The notes under the pieces: model-generated | What the model saw: only the letters and a program-made list of their open reading frames with translations | Told to the model about the DNA's origin: nothing | The model's database searches: none | Origin: Candidatus Woesearchaeota archaeon | GTDB taxonomy: Archaea; Nanobdellota; Nanobdellia; Woesearchaeales; GW2011-AR4 | Direction of reading: 5' to 3' | DNA: 33,318 nt | NCBI GenBank assembly: GCA_016185805.1 | Contig: JACPMW010000018.1 | Location: 1 to 33,318 of the forward strand | Program-made: the position numbers and the translations under genes | Part shown: positions 22,736-30,881 of the stretch, piece by piece | Layout: the number at the start of each line of letters is the position of its first letter | Position numbering within the stretch: the first letter of the stretch is position 1

Positions 22736-22928
22736 TGGGAGTGGTGGTTGGGGATGAGTAATTAGAGAATGCATACATCTAAATTGGTACTGAATCATTC
22801 CTTAGGTTTTAGGTATGAATATAAATTTTCTAAAAGTAAAATTACTCTCTTGCCATATAATTTTAAATAGATTATCTTTTCCAGAAAATATTGAATAATA
22901 TTTTCCTATTTTCAGGCATACAAATTAA

Positions 22929-25154
22929 CTAAATTATTTTAAACGCCTTGACTAGCCCATCTTCATCAATCTTAATCTTGTAATCATATTTTATTGATAC
23001 AACTACTTTATTTGGTTCAATTTTTTGTTTTTTATGCTTAGCAGTGAACTCTTCACCAGTCAATATTGTTACCTCAGCGGGAAGTTTGACTTCCCTTTCT
23101 GTCTCATAGATATTTTTATCAAATCTGATATCCCAATGGATCTTTTTAGGGTCAGCCACAAACGCCATTCCAGCCCTGTTTCGATCTATGAAACTTAAGA
23201 CTTCTAATTCCTCCTCTTTAATCAGTATATACTCTTTATTAGCTCTAGAATGGTCGTATCGAATTAAATTTCTAATATCAGTTTTAGCATTTAGTGGCCA
23301 TAATAAAATCTTACCTTTCAGTTGATCAACCGACAATTTGTTAATTTCCAATTCAAAGTTATCCTCTTTTGTGATATCCACTATGGGCAATTTCAAATTT
23401 GTCAATTCCCTAACCAAAAAGTGCAATTCTGATTCCGCCAGCTGAGATCCTAAATCATATCCAGAATGATCAGTAGCATAATGATGATTTCCAGACGTAT
23501 CTACAAACCAAATTCTATCAAAAATTAAATTATGAAATAACGATTTATATTTTCCAGTTATATTTCCAATAGTTACAGCTTTGGATATTTCAGACCTAGA
23601 ATTATAGCCATCTGCAAACTTACTACAAAATTCTTTCTTTTTTTCATTGCTTAATCCTTTACCTAGGTCATAGTTTTCAATCATTTCTTCATATCTTTTA
23701 CTATTATCAATTATGTATTGTATAACTATCAAAGGTGAAACATTGATTCCAAATCCTAATTGTAAATATTCTAATTTCCAATCTTGTTTAATTATAAACT
23801 TGGCCTCGTTCTCAGATGATATGAGCGTTCTAATCAATGGTAAGTCATCAGGTTTATTTTTCTTTATACTAATATCTGAAAATATTTTTCCAACATCATC
23901 TACATTTTGAGGCTTATATGCAATCATTATACACAAAACAAAAAATTTAAATTTCATAACTTCATCTTCCATAGAGAAATAGTCAGTGATACTTAATAGA
24001 TGTATTAAGTCTCTAACTTTAAGACTTATCACTCCACCCTCATTAACCAAAACATAATTTTTTGGTCTGATAATTGAATAATCAAATATCTTTTTCAAGA
24101 ATTCAACATTATCATTTTCTAAGCAATAACATCCAATTTTATAAAATTGTTTAGATAGAAATAAATCTCCATATATTTTAAATTTAGAGTTATTAGAAAA
24201 GAAACTTAATTCATTTTCAAATATTGTAATTCTAAAATTATCCTCATTATTTGAATTGATTATTTGAAGATTTGCTTGATAAAGGAAACTTTCATATAGC
24301 CCAATATATTCATCTTTCATTGGTTTCTTATCTTCTAAATTTCTATTTTTTGGATCGTAAATAACATCTATAACATCCCTATAAGTATACATGATCCTGT
24401 TACATAAAGTACTTTTTTCTTCTAAGCATATAGATAAACAATCATTTAGATTTTGAAATAGATACTCAATTACACCACCCCTTTTATCGATTCGTGAATT
24501 TTCAAAAAGGGCTAGCCTAATATAGTCAAGTTGAAGAGTTGCATAAATACTCTGTTTTTGACGAATCAGGTGCCTAAACAACCTTAAATATGAATTGACA
24601 ATTTCCTGCGTGGTAATAAAAGTATCATGGTAAATTTCTTCCTTAGAATTAATTATTTCGGAAGACTCTTTATATTCGGAAAATGCTTTTCTCATAAAAA
24701 ATAGATTTAGCGCAAGTTTACTATTTAACACCTGCGATAATATCTTATAAACTAGTTCTAAAGTAACCCTATCAAAATAATTAATCTCAATAATATTATT
24801 TATAATCTTATTATAAAACGAATAGGCATTAGAAAGTTCTTTTCCAACGTTTTGTCCTTCTGATAATAAACTATATATCGCTCCAATATTATTTATATAA
24901 ATACGCAAGAGAGTTTTCATACCTTCAAAATCATTATTTTCTATGCTAGTTAGAATAAACTCACTTAATCTTTGATTAATCTGTGTTAATAATTCTGGTC
25001 TTTCCCCTTCACTGAGCAATAATTTATTTTTTTCAATGTCTAATATTGGCAATAACTCAAAATAATAATTAGAATTATAATTTTCCTTCAAACTCCGATT
25101 TATATTCTGTAATTGATTTATCAATTCTCCGTAGAGTACTAATTTATTTTTCAT
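22929..25154 (-). CDS. Large helical (solenoid-like) protein of unknown function
   Basis: 741 aa uninterrupted ORF, mostly helical-looking, no recognised enzyme motif; 11-nt overlap with the upstream gene. Confidence 0.7.
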   Translation of the reverse strand: MKNKLVLYGELINQLQNINRSLKENYNSNYYFELLPILDIEKNKLLLSEGERPELLTQINQRLSEFILTSIENNDFEGMKTLLRIYINNIGAIYSLLSEGQNVGKELSNAYSFYNKIINNIIEINYFDRVTLELVYKILSQVLNSKLALNLFFMRKAFSEYKESSEIINSKEEIYHDTFITTQEIVNSYLRLFRHLIRQKQSIYATLQLDYIRLALFENSRIDKRGGVIEYLFQNLNDCLSICLEEKSTLCNRIMYTYRDVIDVIYDPKNRNLEDKKPMKDEYIGLYESFLYQANLQIINSNNEDNFRITIFENELSFFSNNSKFKIYGDLFLSKQFYKIGCYCLENDNVEFLKKIFDYSIIRPKNYVLVNEGGVISLKVRDLIHLLSITDYFSMEDEVMKFKFFVLCIMIAYKPQNVDDVGKIFSDISIKKNKPDDLPLIRTLISSENEAKFIIKQDWKLEYLQLGFGINVSPLIVIQYIIDNSKRYEEMIENYDLGKGLSNEKKKEFCSKFADGYNSRSEISKAVTIGNITGKYKSLFHNLIFDRIWFVDTSGNHHYATDHSGYDLGSQLAESELHFLVRELTNLKLPIVDITKEDNFELEINKLSVDQLKGKILLWPLNAKTDIRNLIRYDHSRANKEYILIKEEELEVLSFIDRNRAGMAFVADPKKIHWDIRFDKNIYETEREVKLPAEVTILTGEEFTAKHKKQKIEPNKVVVSIKYDYKIKIDEDGLVKAFKII

Positions 25155-26631
25155 TTTTTACCCTTTCATGAATTTTCAAAAATCTTCTAATACCTTCTTC
25201 AATAACATCTTGTTTGTCTTCTTCAATACCTTGACTTAAGTAGCTTCCCAATATTTTGATGTCTTCTATGTTATCCAATTTAAGTGCCTTAATATTTTCT
25301 AATGGGTCAATCAAAACAATGATATGTACCCAAAAGTAAATTAGCAAGACTAAAATGAAAATCATAATGCCAAAATTTAGAAATAAATTTTGAATTTTAT
25401 AGTAAAATAAGGATATATTCAATAATAATACAAAAACAAAGAGCAGAAAGCATAACTTAACTTTAAAATCTCTTTTTAATGCATCCAGAACATTTCTTTG
25501 ATATCTCTTAGAATAAGTTCCTATAATAAAAAGAATCACAGAAAAAAATATTGCAAGAATACTACCAACTAAACCAATAAATGCAAGTTGAGTGTCATCA
25601 TTTATTAAATCCTCTTTTAATTTACTAATTGAAGTATTTTGTTGACTTCCATCATCTTTTTGGAGCGTTTTTGAGCTATTCTTAGGTTGTTGATTCTTTT
25701 CAATCTGTAATTGCCTAGACTTATAAATTGGTATATTTTTAGTAACAACATCTTCTATCTTCCCAAGTAATAGATAAGAATTTGGAAATGTGTTGAAACT
25801 GACCACTATAATTGAGTTATAGGGTTGTGTAAGCAAAACGGAAGAATTTAATACCAAATATCGAACTGACCTGCCAAAAGGTTGATTTGTGCCATTATAA
25901 ATCACTATATTTTTATTTGAATATGTTACTTCATTTATGATCGGCGGTATAATTCCAATTGGTTGAATTTTTACCATTACATCTTCATTGTCATAATAAA
26001 ATTCTTTATCCAAAGTGATCTTAACATTCGAGAATAAGAACATTATAAATGATGCATAAACAATAAATAGAACAATATTAAGGATACCTTTCAAATAAAC
26101 TTTTTTGGACTTAAGTTGAGTTTTGAATTCGTTGTACAACCTGTCACTCATAATTGCATCGTTTTTCATTAGTGGTTTTAAGAAAATTATATAGAAGCTA
26201 ACAGCGTAAATTAAACCAAGTATTATTCCTACAAAAGTTCCAATACTTCTTCCATAATTAAAGGAGAAAACTACTACTAAAAACGAAATGAATGAATTAG
26301 CAGCTAATATTGGCCATCCAGTAATTACCGCAATATATGACTCTTTTTTCTTTAGAGCAATCTTATCTAAATCTGCATCTTTACTTTCCTCAAAAAAAGT
26401 TTCATAATATATTGCACGAATTATAAGACATATATAGCCGCATAAAAAATAAGTGAAAAATACTAAAGCAAATAAAATCCATTCGTAGTCATATTTGAAT
26501 ATCTCAGCTCTGCTAAATTGAATGCTTAATATTAATTTAAAAGATCCAAATAAAACTGCAACAAAAATTCCCAGTATAGTTAGTAATGTAGGAAGATTAG
26601 AATTATGTGATGTTTTATCGTTAGGTTCCAT
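25144..26631 (-). CDS. Polytopic membrane protein with extracytoplasmic domain, unknown function
   Basis: Several hydrophobic segments either side of a soluble beta-rich-looking region. Likely start MEPNDK at 26631, close to its TATA-like element. Confidence 0.7.
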   Translation of the reverse strand: MEPNDKTSHNSNLPTLLTILGIFVAVLFGSFKLILSIQFSRAEIFKYDYEWILFALVFFTYFLCGYICLIIRAIYYETFFEESKDADLDKIALKKKESYIAVITGWPILAANSFISFLVVVFSFNYGRSIGTFVGIILGLIYAVSFYIIFLKPLMKNDAIMSDRLYNEFKTQLKSKKVYLKGILNIVLFIVYASFIMFLFSNVKITLDKEFYYDNEDVMVKIQPIGIIPPIINEVTYSNKNIVIYNGTNQPFGRSVRYLVLNSSVLLTQPYNSIIVVSFNTFPNSYLLLGKIEDVVTKNIPIYKSRQLQIEKNQQPKNSSKTLQKDDGSQQNTSISKLKEDLINDDTQLAFIGLVGSILAIFFSVILFIIGTYSKRYQRNVLDALKRDFKVKLCFLLFVFVLLLNISLFYYKIQNLFLNFGIMIFILVLLIYFWVHIIVLIDPLENIKALKLDNIEDIKILGSYLSQGIEEDKQDVIEEGIRRFLKIHERVKNEK

Positions 26632-26660
26632 ACAATTCAAACTCCACCCCAAAAATAGGT

Positions 26661-26725
26661 GTATTTAAGCTTTTGATATTTAAATTATTCTAATAATTAA
26701 TCAAAATTTCGGAAAGCTTAAATAC
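26661..26725. promoter_or_regulatory. Mirrored divergent promoter pair
   Basis: GTATTTAAGCTTT (26661-26673) and its exact reverse complement AAAGCTTAAATAC (26713-26725). Confidence 0.7.
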
Positions 26726-26763
26726 CGGCTCTTGGAGATACCATGTTAAATGGTGATAGTCCA

Positions 26764-27777
26764 ATGTCCAAGCACGAAGAAACAATCTTTGAAATTGACA
26801 GAATATTATCCAACGTTATTAAATCAATAGATCCTTCTATATTAAACTTCTTCAAGAACTATTTTGAAAAGAATATGTTTTATTTGTATGGTGATAAACT
26901 TGAATTAACACTTGTAGCTGATACAAATATTGTTATAAGTGATGCGTTATCTTATATCAAACATAAGAAGTCATTTTTGTTAAATTTGATAAAATCCCCG
27001 TTCATTAAGTTATTAGCTCCACCATGGTTAAAGGAAGAGTTAGAAAAAAAGATACCACAAGTTTCTAAAAAGCAGAAAATAGATGAAACAGAATTTAGAA
27101 TAATAATCGAAGTTTTCCTTAAAAATATCACTATCATCAATTCTGAAAGTGAAGAAGCCAAGAGTAAAGCATTTTCAATGATTGGTGAAAGAGATGAAAA
27201 AGACATCCCGTACGTAAGCTTGTACCTTTCAATTAAATCTAATGGCATACTGACTAAAGATAAGCATATGACTGGAATTGTAGATATAAGAACTTGGAGT
27301 AGACCAGGAATAGCTGGGAATGTCACAAGTATATTCGAAAAAGGAGCACTATCTTTCGTTTTTATAGGAGAAGGATTACCGGTAATAACTCAACTCATTT
27401 ATGAACTCTGTGCATTAATATTAAGAGGAATTTGGGAAGCAACCTTAATGATTGCAGGTGCCATTACCGCCTTGATTAAAGGTGGAATTAATGCAGTGTC
27501 TAAATCACCAGATTGGTTTAAGGCCTTATTAGGCATACTTGCTATTATTTTACTAATAAACGATAAAAGCAGAGAATCCGTTATTGATGGAATTAATAAT
27601 TTTGTACAAGGCGTCATAAACGTTTTAAAATGGTTTTATGAAGTATTTAAAAGCATAATAGAGGTCATTACCTCATTTATTGAATATGGATTAGTTACAT
27701 TATATTACCTTTTAACTAAAGTTGCAGATACTATTTCCACATACCAGAATATTCAACAAAAAAGTATATCCGCTTAG
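26764..27777 (+). CDS. PIN-domain nuclease with C-terminal membrane region
   Basis: VADTNIVISD, PPWLKEELEKKI, ERDEKDIPYVSLYLSIKSNGILTKDKH (D/E/D/D pattern), then several hydrophobic segments. GGTGAT before ATG 26764; ORF-track start at 26743. Confidence 0.78.
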   Translation: MSKHEETIFEIDRILSNVIKSIDPSILNFFKNYFEKNMFYLYGDKLELTLVADTNIVISDALSYIKHKKSFLLNLIKSPFIKLLAPPWLKEELEKKIPQVSKKQKIDETEFRIIIEVFLKNITIINSESEEAKSKAFSMIGERDEKDIPYVSLYLSIKSNGILTKDKHMTGIVDIRTWSRPGIAGNVTSIFEKGALSFVFIGEGLPVITQLIYELCALILRGIWEATLMIAGAITALIKGGINAVSKSPDWFKALLGILAIILLINDKSRESVIDGINNFVQGVINVLKWFYEVFKSIIEVITSFIEYGLVTLYYLLTKVADTISTYQNIQQKSISA

Positions 27778-27782
27778 ATTAT

Positions 27783-28004
27783 CTAATAAACTCTTTCTTC
27801 ATTGGACTCTAATGCTTCTATCATATTATAGCATTTTTCCTGCCGTTTGCTTATGTCTTTATCTTTCAAATAGTAATATGTACCACTTTCCTCATCTTGT
27901 AATTCACTTTGATAGATTGCTAGTGCCGATCTTAGAATATCTAATTCAAAAAAATCCAATTCTATTTGTACTTTCTCTTTTTCAAAATTTACAATTGTTT
28001 TCAT
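27783..28004 (-). CDS. Small acidic hypothetical protein, 73 aa
   Basis: SD-like AAGGTGAT upstream of the ATG; MKTIVNFEKEKVQIELDFFELDILRSALAIYQSEL... Confidence 0.55.
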   Translation of the reverse strand: MKTIVNFEKEKVQIELDFFELDILRSALAIYQSELQDEESGTYYYLKDKDISKRQEKCYNMIEALESNEERVY

Positions 28005-28069
28005 AATATCACCTTATTTAATTTATTAATTTCGCTTTATTTTTCTAGATTAAAGATATCTTATATTAT

Positions 28070-28432
28070 TTATAATCCTCTTATTAACTCCCATCTTTTA
28101 CCATGGATTTTGCCGATTTCCTTGATAAGGTAGTTTTCCCATTTATCAGCTTTATAAGTGTGGATAAAAACAACAGGAATCTTGTTTTTTTCATAAATTT
28201 TCTTCCGATAAGAATAGTCTCTTTTGTCTGTCCCGCAGACTTCAATATAGACACCTAGCTCCGGAAGATAAAAGTCAGGAGTCCATACCCTTGGTCTTTC
28301 CTTATCATCTCTAACGTATATTGGCTGCTCGAAATTCCACCAAATGCCTTGGTCTGCTAAGAAATGAGCAACTTTTATCTCAGCCTGAGTCATATCCTCA
28401 TAAATGGAAATCTGGTATTTTTTCCTTGCCAC
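28070..28432 (-). CDS. PD-(D/E)xK-fold-like nuclease domain protein
   Basis: MTQAEIKVAHFLADQGIWWNFEQPIYV...RVWTPDFYLPELGVYIEVCGTDKRDYSYRKKIYEKNKIPVVFIHTYK. Confidence 0.7.
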   Translation of the reverse strand: MARKKYQISIYEDMTQAEIKVAHFLADQGIWWNFEQPIYVRDDKERPRVWTPDFYLPELGVYIEVCGTDKRDYSYRKKIYEKNKIPVVFIHTYKADKWENYLIKEIGKIHGKRWELIRGL

Positions 28433-28545
28433 AAAGCATAATTTTGGTTTACTTTATTTAATATTTACTAAAACTGGCCAATTCTCGAGAAAGCATGTCA
28501 TTTCCCCTTATGCATCTTCTCTTAATTACCTTAATTACCAAAACC

Positions 28546-28615: not shown

Positions 28616-28885
28616 ATGGAAAAGGGGATGGTGACTGCTGTATCTTTGCTGAAATCCAGCGAATATAGGAAAAGAATCATTCAAGCCATAGGCAGCGATA
28701 CTTTAACCCCTTCTGAAATAGCAAATAAGATAAATATAAGACTAAACCATGTCAGCTTATTCTTAAGGCAGCTAAAAGAAAACAAGCTAGTCAAGTGCCT
28801 CAATGAAGAGCAAAGAAAAGGCAGATTATACGAATTAACAGAGCTGGGCAAAAATGCAATCAATAAACTTAACCAAAAAATTTAA
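28616..28885 (+). CDS. Winged-HTH (ArsR-like) regulator, putative R-M controller
   Basis: LTPSEIANKINIRLNHVSLFLRQLKENKLVKCLNEEQRKGRLYELTELGK; overlaps the methyltransferase by 32 nt. The true start may be the ATG at 28628. Confidence 0.8.
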   Translation: MEKGMVTAVSLLKSSEYRKRIIQAIGSDTLTPSEIANKINIRLNHVSLFLRQLKENKLVKCLNEEQRKGRLYELTELGKNAINKLNQKI

Positions 28886-30131
28886 GGACACAAGCTGGGA
28901 CTTTCAAAAGGCCTTTACTAAATACAGCAATCATGGATTTCATACTTATCCAGCCATGATGATACCCCAAATAACAAAAAGATTGATAGAGATGTATGGG
29001 AATAAAGCAAAAGTCCTTCTTGACCCTTTCATGGGCTCCGGAACTGCCCTTTTAGAGGCCACTTTGCATGACAATTTCAAAAAAGCCTATGGAATAGACA
29101 TAAACCCATTAGCACTATTAATATCAAAAGTAAAGACAACTCCGATAGAGCCAAAGCTTCTGGAAAAAGAATACAAAAATTTAATAGAGAACTGCCAAGA
29201 AGACAAAAAAGACATTAATTTCAGGCAAAAAACAATCGAAAAGCCAAATTTCACAAATATTGACTTCTGGTTCAAGCCAAAAGTGATAACTGATTTAGCA
29301 ATAATAAAAAAGAATATAGATCAAATAGAAAATAAAGACGTAAAAAACTTCTTTTTGGTAGCTTTTTCTGAAACTGTTAGGAATGCTTCAAACACAAGAA
29401 ACAATGAATACAAGCTTTATAGAATGAACGAATCAATGCTAAAAAAGCACAATCCAGATACAATAAATTTATTCAAGGAAAAAGCCGAAGAAAACATGGA
29501 AAGCATGAAAGAATACTATGAAAATTACAATGAAAACTGCAAAGTCCATATTCTGTCTGAAGACACAAGGCATAAAACCTCTATTCAAGACCAAGAAGTT
29601 GATTTAATTGTAACCTCTCCACCATATGGAGACAGCAGGACAACAGTAGCTTATGGCCAATTTTCAAGGCTGTCTTTGCAATGGCTGGGATTAAACAGCA
29701 AGGATGTGCTAAACATAGATAGAATTAGCTTGGGAGGAATTCCAACCAAAGACTTGAATAATAACTTAAAATCCCAAACATTGCAGGAAACTCTTCAAAA
29801 AATCGCTGACAATGATCCAATAAGGGCAAGAGATGTATTAAGCTTTTACGAAGATTTTGATAAATGCGTGCAGGAATTGCACAGAGTTACAAAGCAAGGA
29901 GCTTTCATATGCTTTGTTGTTGGCAATAGGACTGTGAAAGGAGTTCAGATACCGACAGATGAAATCATTTTGGAACTATTTCAATCTAGAAACCATTACA
30001 AGCACCATAATACTTTTATTAGAAATATTCCGCATAAAAGAATGCCAAAATTGAATAGTCCAACAAATATAAGCGGCAATCATGCAATGACAATGAATGA
30101 AGAATGGATTGTGATTTTAGAAAAGCAATAG
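28854..30131 (+). CDS. Type II amino-DNA methyltransferase (m4C/m6A type)
   Basis: Motif I DPFMGSGTALLEA, motif IV TSPPYGDSRTTVAYGQFSRLSLQWLG; FHTYPAMMIPQI N-terminus. Confidence 0.9.
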   Translation: MQSINLTKKFKDTSWDFQKAFTKYSNHGFHTYPAMMIPQITKRLIEMYGNKAKVLLDPFMGSGTALLEATLHDNFKKAYGIDINPLALLISKVKTTPIEPKLLEKEYKNLIENCQEDKKDINFRQKTIEKPNFTNIDFWFKPKVITDLAIIKKNIDQIENKDVKNFFLVAFSETVRNASNTRNNEYKLYRMNESMLKKHNPDTINLFKEKAEENMESMKEYYENYNENCKVHILSEDTRHKTSIQDQEVDLIVTSPPYGDSRTTVAYGQFSRLSLQWLGLNSKDVLNIDRISLGGIPTKDLNNNLKSQTLQETLQKIADNDPIRARDVLSFYEDFDKCVQELHRVTKQGAFICFVVGNRTVKGVQIPTDEIILELFQSRNHYKHHNTFIRNIPHKRMPKLNSPTNISGNHAMTMNEEWIVILEKQ

Positions 30132-30881
30132 CTATATTTCTTCAATATCAAAGACTTTATTCAAATCTTTTTTATGAACTCTAAATCCAGAGCCATGGTC
30201 ATGGGTTTTGCCTTTATTCTTTCCAGTTCCGTAAACTCCTAGCCTAATATCATAAAGTATAATGCCTTCTTCGATAAGCTTAAGAAATTTATCAATAGCC
30301 AATCCTGTCATCAAAATTGCTTTTGTGAAGCTAAAAAATTCTGTACCATTTTCTTTCTTGCTATCTGCATAAATAACTGCTATATTCTTGCATTTTTTAT
30401 TTATTATATTTGTTAAATCATCAAAGCTGTAATAAACATCTTTTTCTATAATCTCTCCAGAAGACAGCTCTTTAACATTAAGATTAATCCTTTGCAATTG
30501 CCTATCAACTTCAAGCTTAAAGCCGTATTTGTCAATGAAAGTGTTGAATTTTGCGCCTGAAACTGTGGTGTGAAGCACCTTGCAATCTGGATGATTTTCA
30601 TGAGGCTTGCCATACTTCTCTCTTAGATTAGTGTTGATTTTCTTTGGGAAAGTAGGTGATTTTGTAAATAGGGTTAGCATGCTTCCAGATAATTCTCTTT
30701 TTGATTTAAGTTCAAGAACGCCTTTATAATCTGCCTCTTTGATGTTATTTTCAGCTATATTCATAAGGTCTTCAAAAGTTTTCCCGATTCCAGTATCATG
30801 AATTCTGTTAGAAGGAATAAAGCCTTTACTCTTGATTTTAGCAAATTCTTTTTTGAAATTTTCAATAACATCTCTATCCAT
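30132..30881 (-). CDS. MvaI/BcnI-family restriction endonuclease
   Basis: GIGKTFEDLMNIAENNIKEADYKGVLELKSKRELSGSMLTLFTKSP (D...ELK active-site pattern); tail-to-tail with the methyltransferase. Confidence 0.85.
   Translation of the reverse strand: MDRDVIENFKKEFAKIKSKGFIPSNRIHDTGIGKTFEDLMNIAENNIKEADYKGVLELKSKRELSGSMLTLFTKSPTFPKKINTNLREKYGKPHENHPDCKVLHTTVSGAKFNTFIDKYGFKLEVDRQLQRINLNVKELSSGEIIEKDVYYSFDDLTNIINKKCKNIAVIYADSKKENGTEFFSFTKAILMTGLAIDKFLKLIEEGIILYDIRLGVYGTGKNKGKTHDHGSGFRVHKKDLNKVFDIEEI

What the first reader, a model, noticed from the sequence alone, without database searches (positions are those of the whole stretch)
22929..27777. Candidate undescribed system: membrane protein plus solenoid-like protein divergent from a membrane-tethered PIN nuclease
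A 741-aa helical protein overlaps (11 nt) a polytopic membrane protein, and both face a PIN nuclease with an intact D/E/D/D pattern and a hydrophobic C-terminus. The block is visibly more AT-rich than the housekeeping genes to its left and abuts R-M and PIN/antitoxin genes. The architecture suggests a membrane sensor or channel controlling a tethered RNase, possibly abortive-infection-like. Motifs and layout are seen; function is inference.
Basis: partly seen in the sequence, partly recalled or inferred. Interest (0 to 1): 0.78.

Follow-up and report, generated by a model that had tools for sequence, protein, structure and literature searches.

The report
Archaeal membrane-linked PIN nuclease with orphan operon
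A stretch of probably foreign DNA in a tiny archaeon carries an uncharacterised kind of PIN-domain RNA-cutting enzyme with a greasy tail, facing two unknown genes that share its promoter element; the enzyme recurs in distant archaea but never with those two genes, so the proposed three-gene system is unproven.

Summary
The three genes are real and placed as described: a 741-aa helical orphan, a membrane protein of about 8 TM helices overlapping it by 11 nt, and a divergent PIN_2 protein with catalytic D60/E99/D154/D173 and a hydrophobic helical tail. All three lie in a 5.8-kb AT-rich segment (28.7% GC) missing cleanly from a same-genus relative at a variable insertion site (FtsX | AMP-ligase), beside an MvaI/BcnI-type R-M system.

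The PIN protein belongs to a patchy archaeal family, defined here: Altiarchaeales A3 (51% identity, full length), a M. jannaschii plasmid (35%, split by a stop) and three genomes of one further euryarchaeal phylum. None of these five loci has a relative of the other two genes. Those two genes have no relative in any collection I searched.

One new observation supports local coupling. The 111-nt divergent intergenic region has a 13-nt perfect inverted repeat whose arms sit where both promoters should be. Its 12-nt core occurs nowhere else in the 939-kb genome.

Best reading: a membrane-associated RNase/toxin acquired with, and probably co-regulated with, an orphan membrane-plus-solenoid operon. 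Function is inferred. Interest is moderate.

The parts
22929..25154 (-). 741-aa orphan protein, helical N-terminal half, no hydrophobic segment; second gene of the minus-strand operon
   Evidence: no match in Pfam, PADLOC, NCBIfam, PDB, plasmids, phages; no real match in 278 other genomes of its phylum or 390 of another
25144..26652 (-). 502-aa (495 aa from ATG 26631) orphan membrane protein, 8 hydrophobic segments with a loop of about 150 aa between segments 5 and 6; first gene of the operon, overlaps the next by 11 nt
   Evidence: no family and no credible relative
26743..27777 (+). 344-aa PIN_2 nuclease with hydrophobic helical C-terminal extension (start probably ATG 26764)
   Evidence: PF10130 E 1.3e-15; full-length homologue in Altiarchaeales A3, 51% identity; family alignment with invariant D60, E99, D154, D173
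26661..26673 (-). inverted-repeat arm (AAAGCTTAAATAC on the minus strand), at core-promoter position for the membrane-protein operon
26713..26725 (+). inverted-repeat arm (AAAGCTTAAATAC), at core-promoter position for the PIN gene
   Evidence: 12-nt core occurs only at these two places in the 939-kb genome
22736..28541 (.). 5.8-kb AT-rich segment (GC 0.287) absent from same-genus genome G183, where the FtsX stop is followed within about 13 nt by sequence homologous to 28542 onward
27783..28004 (-). 73-aa ORF of unknown function, inside the same segment
   Evidence: no family
28070..28432 (-). 120-aa PD-(D/E)XK-type nuclease, inside the same segment
   Evidence: PADLOC PDC-S69 E 1e-7; PHROG Holliday junction resolvase/endonuclease E 4e-7
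28616..28885 (+). winged-helix regulator
   Evidence: PF12840 E 5e-7; 84% identical copy in G183
28854..30131 (+). type II DNA methyltransferase
   Evidence: PADLOC MTase_II E 5e-148
30132..30881 (-). MvaI/BcnI-family restriction endonuclease
   Evidence: PF15515 E 7e-59

Best explanation
The PIN gene encodes a membrane-associated RNase of a so far unnamed archaeal family (PIN_2 domain plus a helical hydrophobic tail). It was brought into a variable site of a small archaeal genome on a 5.8-kb AT-rich segment, together with an orphan operon for a membrane protein and a large helical cytosolic protein. The two divergent units are probably switched on together through a shared promoter/operator element. 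The most likely working model is a membrane-held RNase acting as toxin or effector, with the membrane protein and its helical partner as the co-expressed membrane-side sensor or restraint. Shown: genes, family, catalytic residues, clean absence in a relative, unique inverted repeat. Inferred: RNase activity, membrane anchoring, co-regulation, the control relation and a defence role.
For: PIN_2 match and invariant D/E/D/D in six members. Full-length family with the same tail in Altiarchaeales, three further euryarchaea and a M. jannaschii plasmid, where the tail continues in the next frame. The 22736-28541 segment is absent from G183, and G204 has an almost empty site of about 18 nt. The same slot in G174 holds two Fic proteins and an Aga_HEPN/PD-Lambda-3-like protein. 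A 13-nt perfect inverted repeat in the 111-nt divergent region was reached in 1 of 5000 dinucleotide shuffles, and its 12-nt core is found only there in the genome. GC3 of the three genes is alike (0.22-0.26), against 0.38-0.40 for the nearest neighbours (28070-28432 and 28616-28885).
Against: No family member elsewhere has relatives of the two partner genes nearby, so the PIN protein does not need them in general. The inverted repeat may be no more than two similar BRE/TATA promoters, and it is absent upstream of the Altiarchaeales and M. jannaschii copies (read by eye). The tail is only borderline for a TM helix in this copy. No homologues or usable structure exist for the two partners.
Confidence: 0.42

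Rival explanations
1. Coincidental neighbours: the PIN-tail gene is a stand-alone mobile toxin/RNase, and the membrane + helical operon is an unrelated orphan pair that landed in the same insertion-prone site.
For: All five homologous PIN-tail loci lack the partners and have different neighbours: type I R-M, an ATP-dependent endonuclease and EVE on the M. jannaschii plasmid; NYN nuclease and Schlafen-AlbA_2 in G543, transposase-like ORFs and a DUF4145 protein in G366; tRNA-Ala/tRNA-Ser upstream in Altiarchaeales. The site takes up different cargo in relatives.
Against: The divergent unique inverted repeat and matched GC3 suggest one unit; the three genes share one cleanly bounded segment.
Confidence: 0.4
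2. Ordinary cellular function: the PIN-tail protein is a membrane-associated RNA-processing or surveillance enzyme, not a conflict gene.
For: Intact, under evident constraint (51% identity along the full length between two archaeal phyla), and not always next to recognised defence genes (G444).
Against: Very patchy: full-length copies in 1 of 279 phylum genomes and 1 of 29 of the Altiarchaeales phylum; plasmid-borne and broken in M. jannaschii; lies on an inserted segment here.
Confidence: 0.13
3. Decaying foreign DNA: the genes are remnants of a plasmid or virus without present function.
For: AT-rich inserted segment; no relatives for two genes; the M. jannaschii copy is split by a stop.
Against: Three long intact frames here and intact catalytic residues; well-formed divergent promoter region.
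Confidence: 0.05

Closest known systems
Pfam PIN_2 (PF10130) / VapC-like PIN toxins
   Same: PIN fold family by sequence (E 1.3e-15) with the D/E/D/D acid set
   Different: Fused to an N-terminal segment of about 50 aa and a hydrophobic helical tail of about 150 aa; no small antitoxin gene beside it in the window; NCBIfam TIGR00305 match far below cut-off
M. jannaschii plasmid PIN protein WP_244409552.1 (NC_001732.1, MJ_RS09165) with the following hypothetical WP_064497002.1
   Same: 35% identity over PIN and N-terminal segment; tail homologous to the next frame (E 1.2e-8); beside type I R-M, an ATP-dependent endonuclease and EVE genes
   Different: Split by a stop; no membrane or solenoid partner on the whole plasmid
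Altiarchaeales archaeon A3 protein (MTER01000168.1, L027:511-1545)
   Same: Same length, 51% identity over PIN and tail
   Different: Downstream of two tRNA genes; no partner genes on its 6-kb contig; upstream region lacks the inverted repeat
Two-component membrane-sensor defence systems (general concept)
   Same: Membrane protein co-encoded with a helical-repeat-like protein and a nuclease nearby
   Different: No sequence match of either partner to any PADLOC model

Membership tests
PIN_2 nuclease (PF10130) | Profile score above the curated cut-off | tested here: met
   58.3 bits against 22.4
PIN_2 nuclease (PF10130) | Conserved acidic active-site residues | tested here: met
   D60, E99, D154, D173 invariant in six members
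PIN_2 nuclease (PF10130) | Metal-dependent RNase activity | not testable with these tools
   needs biochemistry
VapBC type II toxin-antitoxin | Small antitoxin gene adjacent, same operon | tested here: not met
   No small ORF upstream of the PIN gene; the nearest small ORF (27783-28004) is convergent and matches no antitoxin family
Known anti-phage system in PADLOC | Profile match of any of the three proteins | tested here: not met
   0 families for all three at E up to 1
   five homologous PIN loci, none with partners; partners not found in 279 and 237 phylum genomes beyond the window itself, nor in 390 of another phylum
   unique 13-nt inverted repeat at both promoter positions; expression not testable
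Membrane-tethered nuclease | Clear transmembrane helix in the tail | tested here: inconclusive
   hydropathy borderline here, clearer in relatives; AlphaFold tail helical, pLDDT about 60-70

The most novel reading that the evidence does not exclude
The three genes form one divergently regulated membrane surveillance module of a new kind: a membrane protein with an external domain and a large cytosolic helical partner that restrain or trigger a membrane-held PIN RNase. The PIN family is a common effector that has paired with different sensors in different archaea.
Probability: 0.25. Interest if true: 0.68.

Novelty: new variant of a known kind. Interest (0 to 1): 0.42.

Why it matters
It defines an archaeal family of PIN nucleases with a conserved hydrophobic tail that crosses at least four archaeal groups, often on mobile or defence-rich DNA, and matches no named defence model. 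If the PIN is a membrane-held effector, it would be an RNA-cutting counterpart to the membrane-disrupting effectors of abortive infection, in archaea where such systems are poorly known.

Tried and rejected
Single-sequence scans of viral and genome collections found nothing (viral, each protein; genomes, PIN protein only). Weak membrane-protein hits in G004, G024, G062 and G165 were rejected: G024, G165 and G004 were opened and the hits fell in or over unrelated genes or stop-interrupted frames; the G062 hit spans three stops. The G479 hit to the 741-aa protein spans three stops and is rejected. Pattern hits in Bacteroidia, Omnitrophota, Rhodanobacteraceae and Benthicola are chance, lying in unrelated ORFs. 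L026 is a short PIN without the tail. AlphaFold models of the 741-aa protein (pLDDT 39) and the PIN protein (42) are too poor for fold searches, so none was run. Tape-measure PHROG matches of the tail (E 0.03 and above) were rejected as hydrophobic-helix bias. One search returned no self-family hits for the PIN query, a script fault; it was repeated correctly. A viral scan with the six-member alignment was negative. Paper searches gave nothing on this family, and the main PIN classification paper is not held.

Full report
WHAT IS THERE. At their own base composition the chance of such open frames is 10^-32, 10^-20 and 10^-13. GC is 0.287 for 22736-28541 and 0.406 for 1-22735. Right of the block lie a winged-helix regulator, a type II methyltransferase and an MvaI/BcnI endonuclease.

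THE PIN PROTEIN. It matches Pfam PIN_2 (E 1.3e-15, residues 58-178) and nothing in PADLOC or the PDB. Plasmid search found a M. jannaschii homologue (35% identity) whose next reading frame is homologous to the window protein's tail (E 1.2e-8), so that copy is split by a stop. A DNA pattern for its G-x-R-D-x-K-D-[IV]-P-[FY]-V motif in 85,462 species genomes found a full-length homologue in Candidatus Altiarchaeales archaeon A3 (51% identity over 323 residues). A profile of the two found three more with tails in the phylum of Euryarchaeota archaeon RBG_19FT_COMBO_69_17 (G444, G366, G543). Across the six, D60, E99, D154 and D173 are invariant, together with N62, A92-P93, G189, and G201 and S204 at the start of the tail; D151 varies. 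Other PIN hits in the window's own phylum are mostly single-domain proteins of about 140 aa.

THE TWO PARTNERS. The 502-aa protein has 8 hydrophobic segments, five then three, around a loop of about 150 residues. The 741-aa protein has none and a predicted helical first half; its AlphaFold model has pLDDT 39 and cannot be used. Neither matches Pfam, PADLOC, NCBIfam, PHROGs, PDB, plasmids or phages with confidence. Neither was found in 279 and 237 genomes of the phylum apart from the window's own, nor in 390 of another phylum.

DOES THE TRIO RECUR? No. All ORFs around the five homologous PIN loci were compared with both partners: nothing below E = 0.1, while the PIN query hit all five (tblastn agrees). 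The M. jannaschii plasmid was searched whole for both partners, as was G444; the Altiarchaeales genome was searched for the membrane protein only. Two contexts are limited: the Altiarchaeales contig is 6 kb, and the G543 contig ends inside the PIN gene.

WHERE THE BLOCK SITS. In relatives FtsX and the AMP-ligase are neighbours with variable cargo between: about 18 nt in G204, 0.2 kb in G316, 1.0 kb in G183, 2.6 kb in G104, 6.1 kb in G174, 13 kb in G090 and 9.7 kb in the window. In G183 the FtsX stop is followed after about 13 nt by sequence matching window 28542 onward, so 22736-28541 is present or absent as one piece. In G174 the slot holds two Fic proteins and an Aga_HEPN/PD-Lambda-3-like protein. 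In G090 and G104 the cargo looks like transport and metabolism from ORF starts read by eye, so the site is insertion-prone rather than a pure defence island.

THE DIVERGENT REGION. The 111 nt between the membrane protein's likely ATG (26631) and the PIN gene's first ATG (26743) hold a perfect 13-nt inverted repeat, GTATTTAAGCTTT (26661-26673) and AAAGCTTAAATAC (26713-26725). One of 5000 dinucleotide shuffles had an arm pair as long. The 12-nt core AAAGCTTAAATA occurs in the whole 939-kb assembly at these two places only, so it is not the genome's general promoter word. Each arm lies 17-38 nt upstream of a possible start codon, where a BRE/TATA box belongs. I read it as twin promoters or operators of one regulon; this is inference. 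Comparable sequence is not seen upstream of the Altiarchaeales or M. jannaschii copies.

MECHANISM. Most likely: a PIN RNase held at the membrane by its tail, expressed together with a membrane protein and a helical cytosolic partner that sense or restrain it. The nuclease assignment is strong by sequence. Membrane attachment is moderately supported. Co-regulation rests on the repeat. The control relation and a defence role are inferred from context. The main rival, nearly as likely, is that the PIN gene works alone and the operon is an unrelated passenger.

VERDICT. What is new is an unnamed archaeal PIN-tail family and a locus-specific divergent repeat. What is not shown is a three-gene system. 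Interest is moderate: 0.42 as it stands, higher if the trio is found again.

Noticed in passing
window:20269-21527: The first FtsX/MacB-like permease is split into two overlapping frames (277 and 168 aa), while relatives have one frame of about 400 aa (e.g. G174:C16:20524-21717). It is a frameshift in this assembly or a real pseudogene.
   Followed up: partly
window:22735-32418: The FtsX | AMP-ligase junction is a variable insertion site in this family of archaea: near-empty in G204 (L093), R-M remnant in G183 (L061), Fic and HEPN-like genes in G174 (L060).
   Followed up: yes
L061:3955-4860: G183 keeps the winged-helix gene and a shortened MvaI-type endonuclease but no methyltransferase between them: a decaying R-M system.
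   Followed up: partly
L081:6971-10495: In G543 a PIN-tail gene overlaps the end of an NYN-domain nuclease gene, following a Schlafen AlbA_2 regulator: two PIN-like nucleases in one operon at a contig end.
   Followed up: partly
L022:7696-7845: A 49-aa ORF precedes the M. jannaschii PIN-tail gene on the same strand; it could be a small antitoxin and has no counterpart in the window.
   Followed up: no
L027:1743-1911: Two tRNA genes (Ala, Ser) lie about 200 nt upstream of the Altiarchaeales PIN-tail gene, a common integration-site setting.
   Followed up: no
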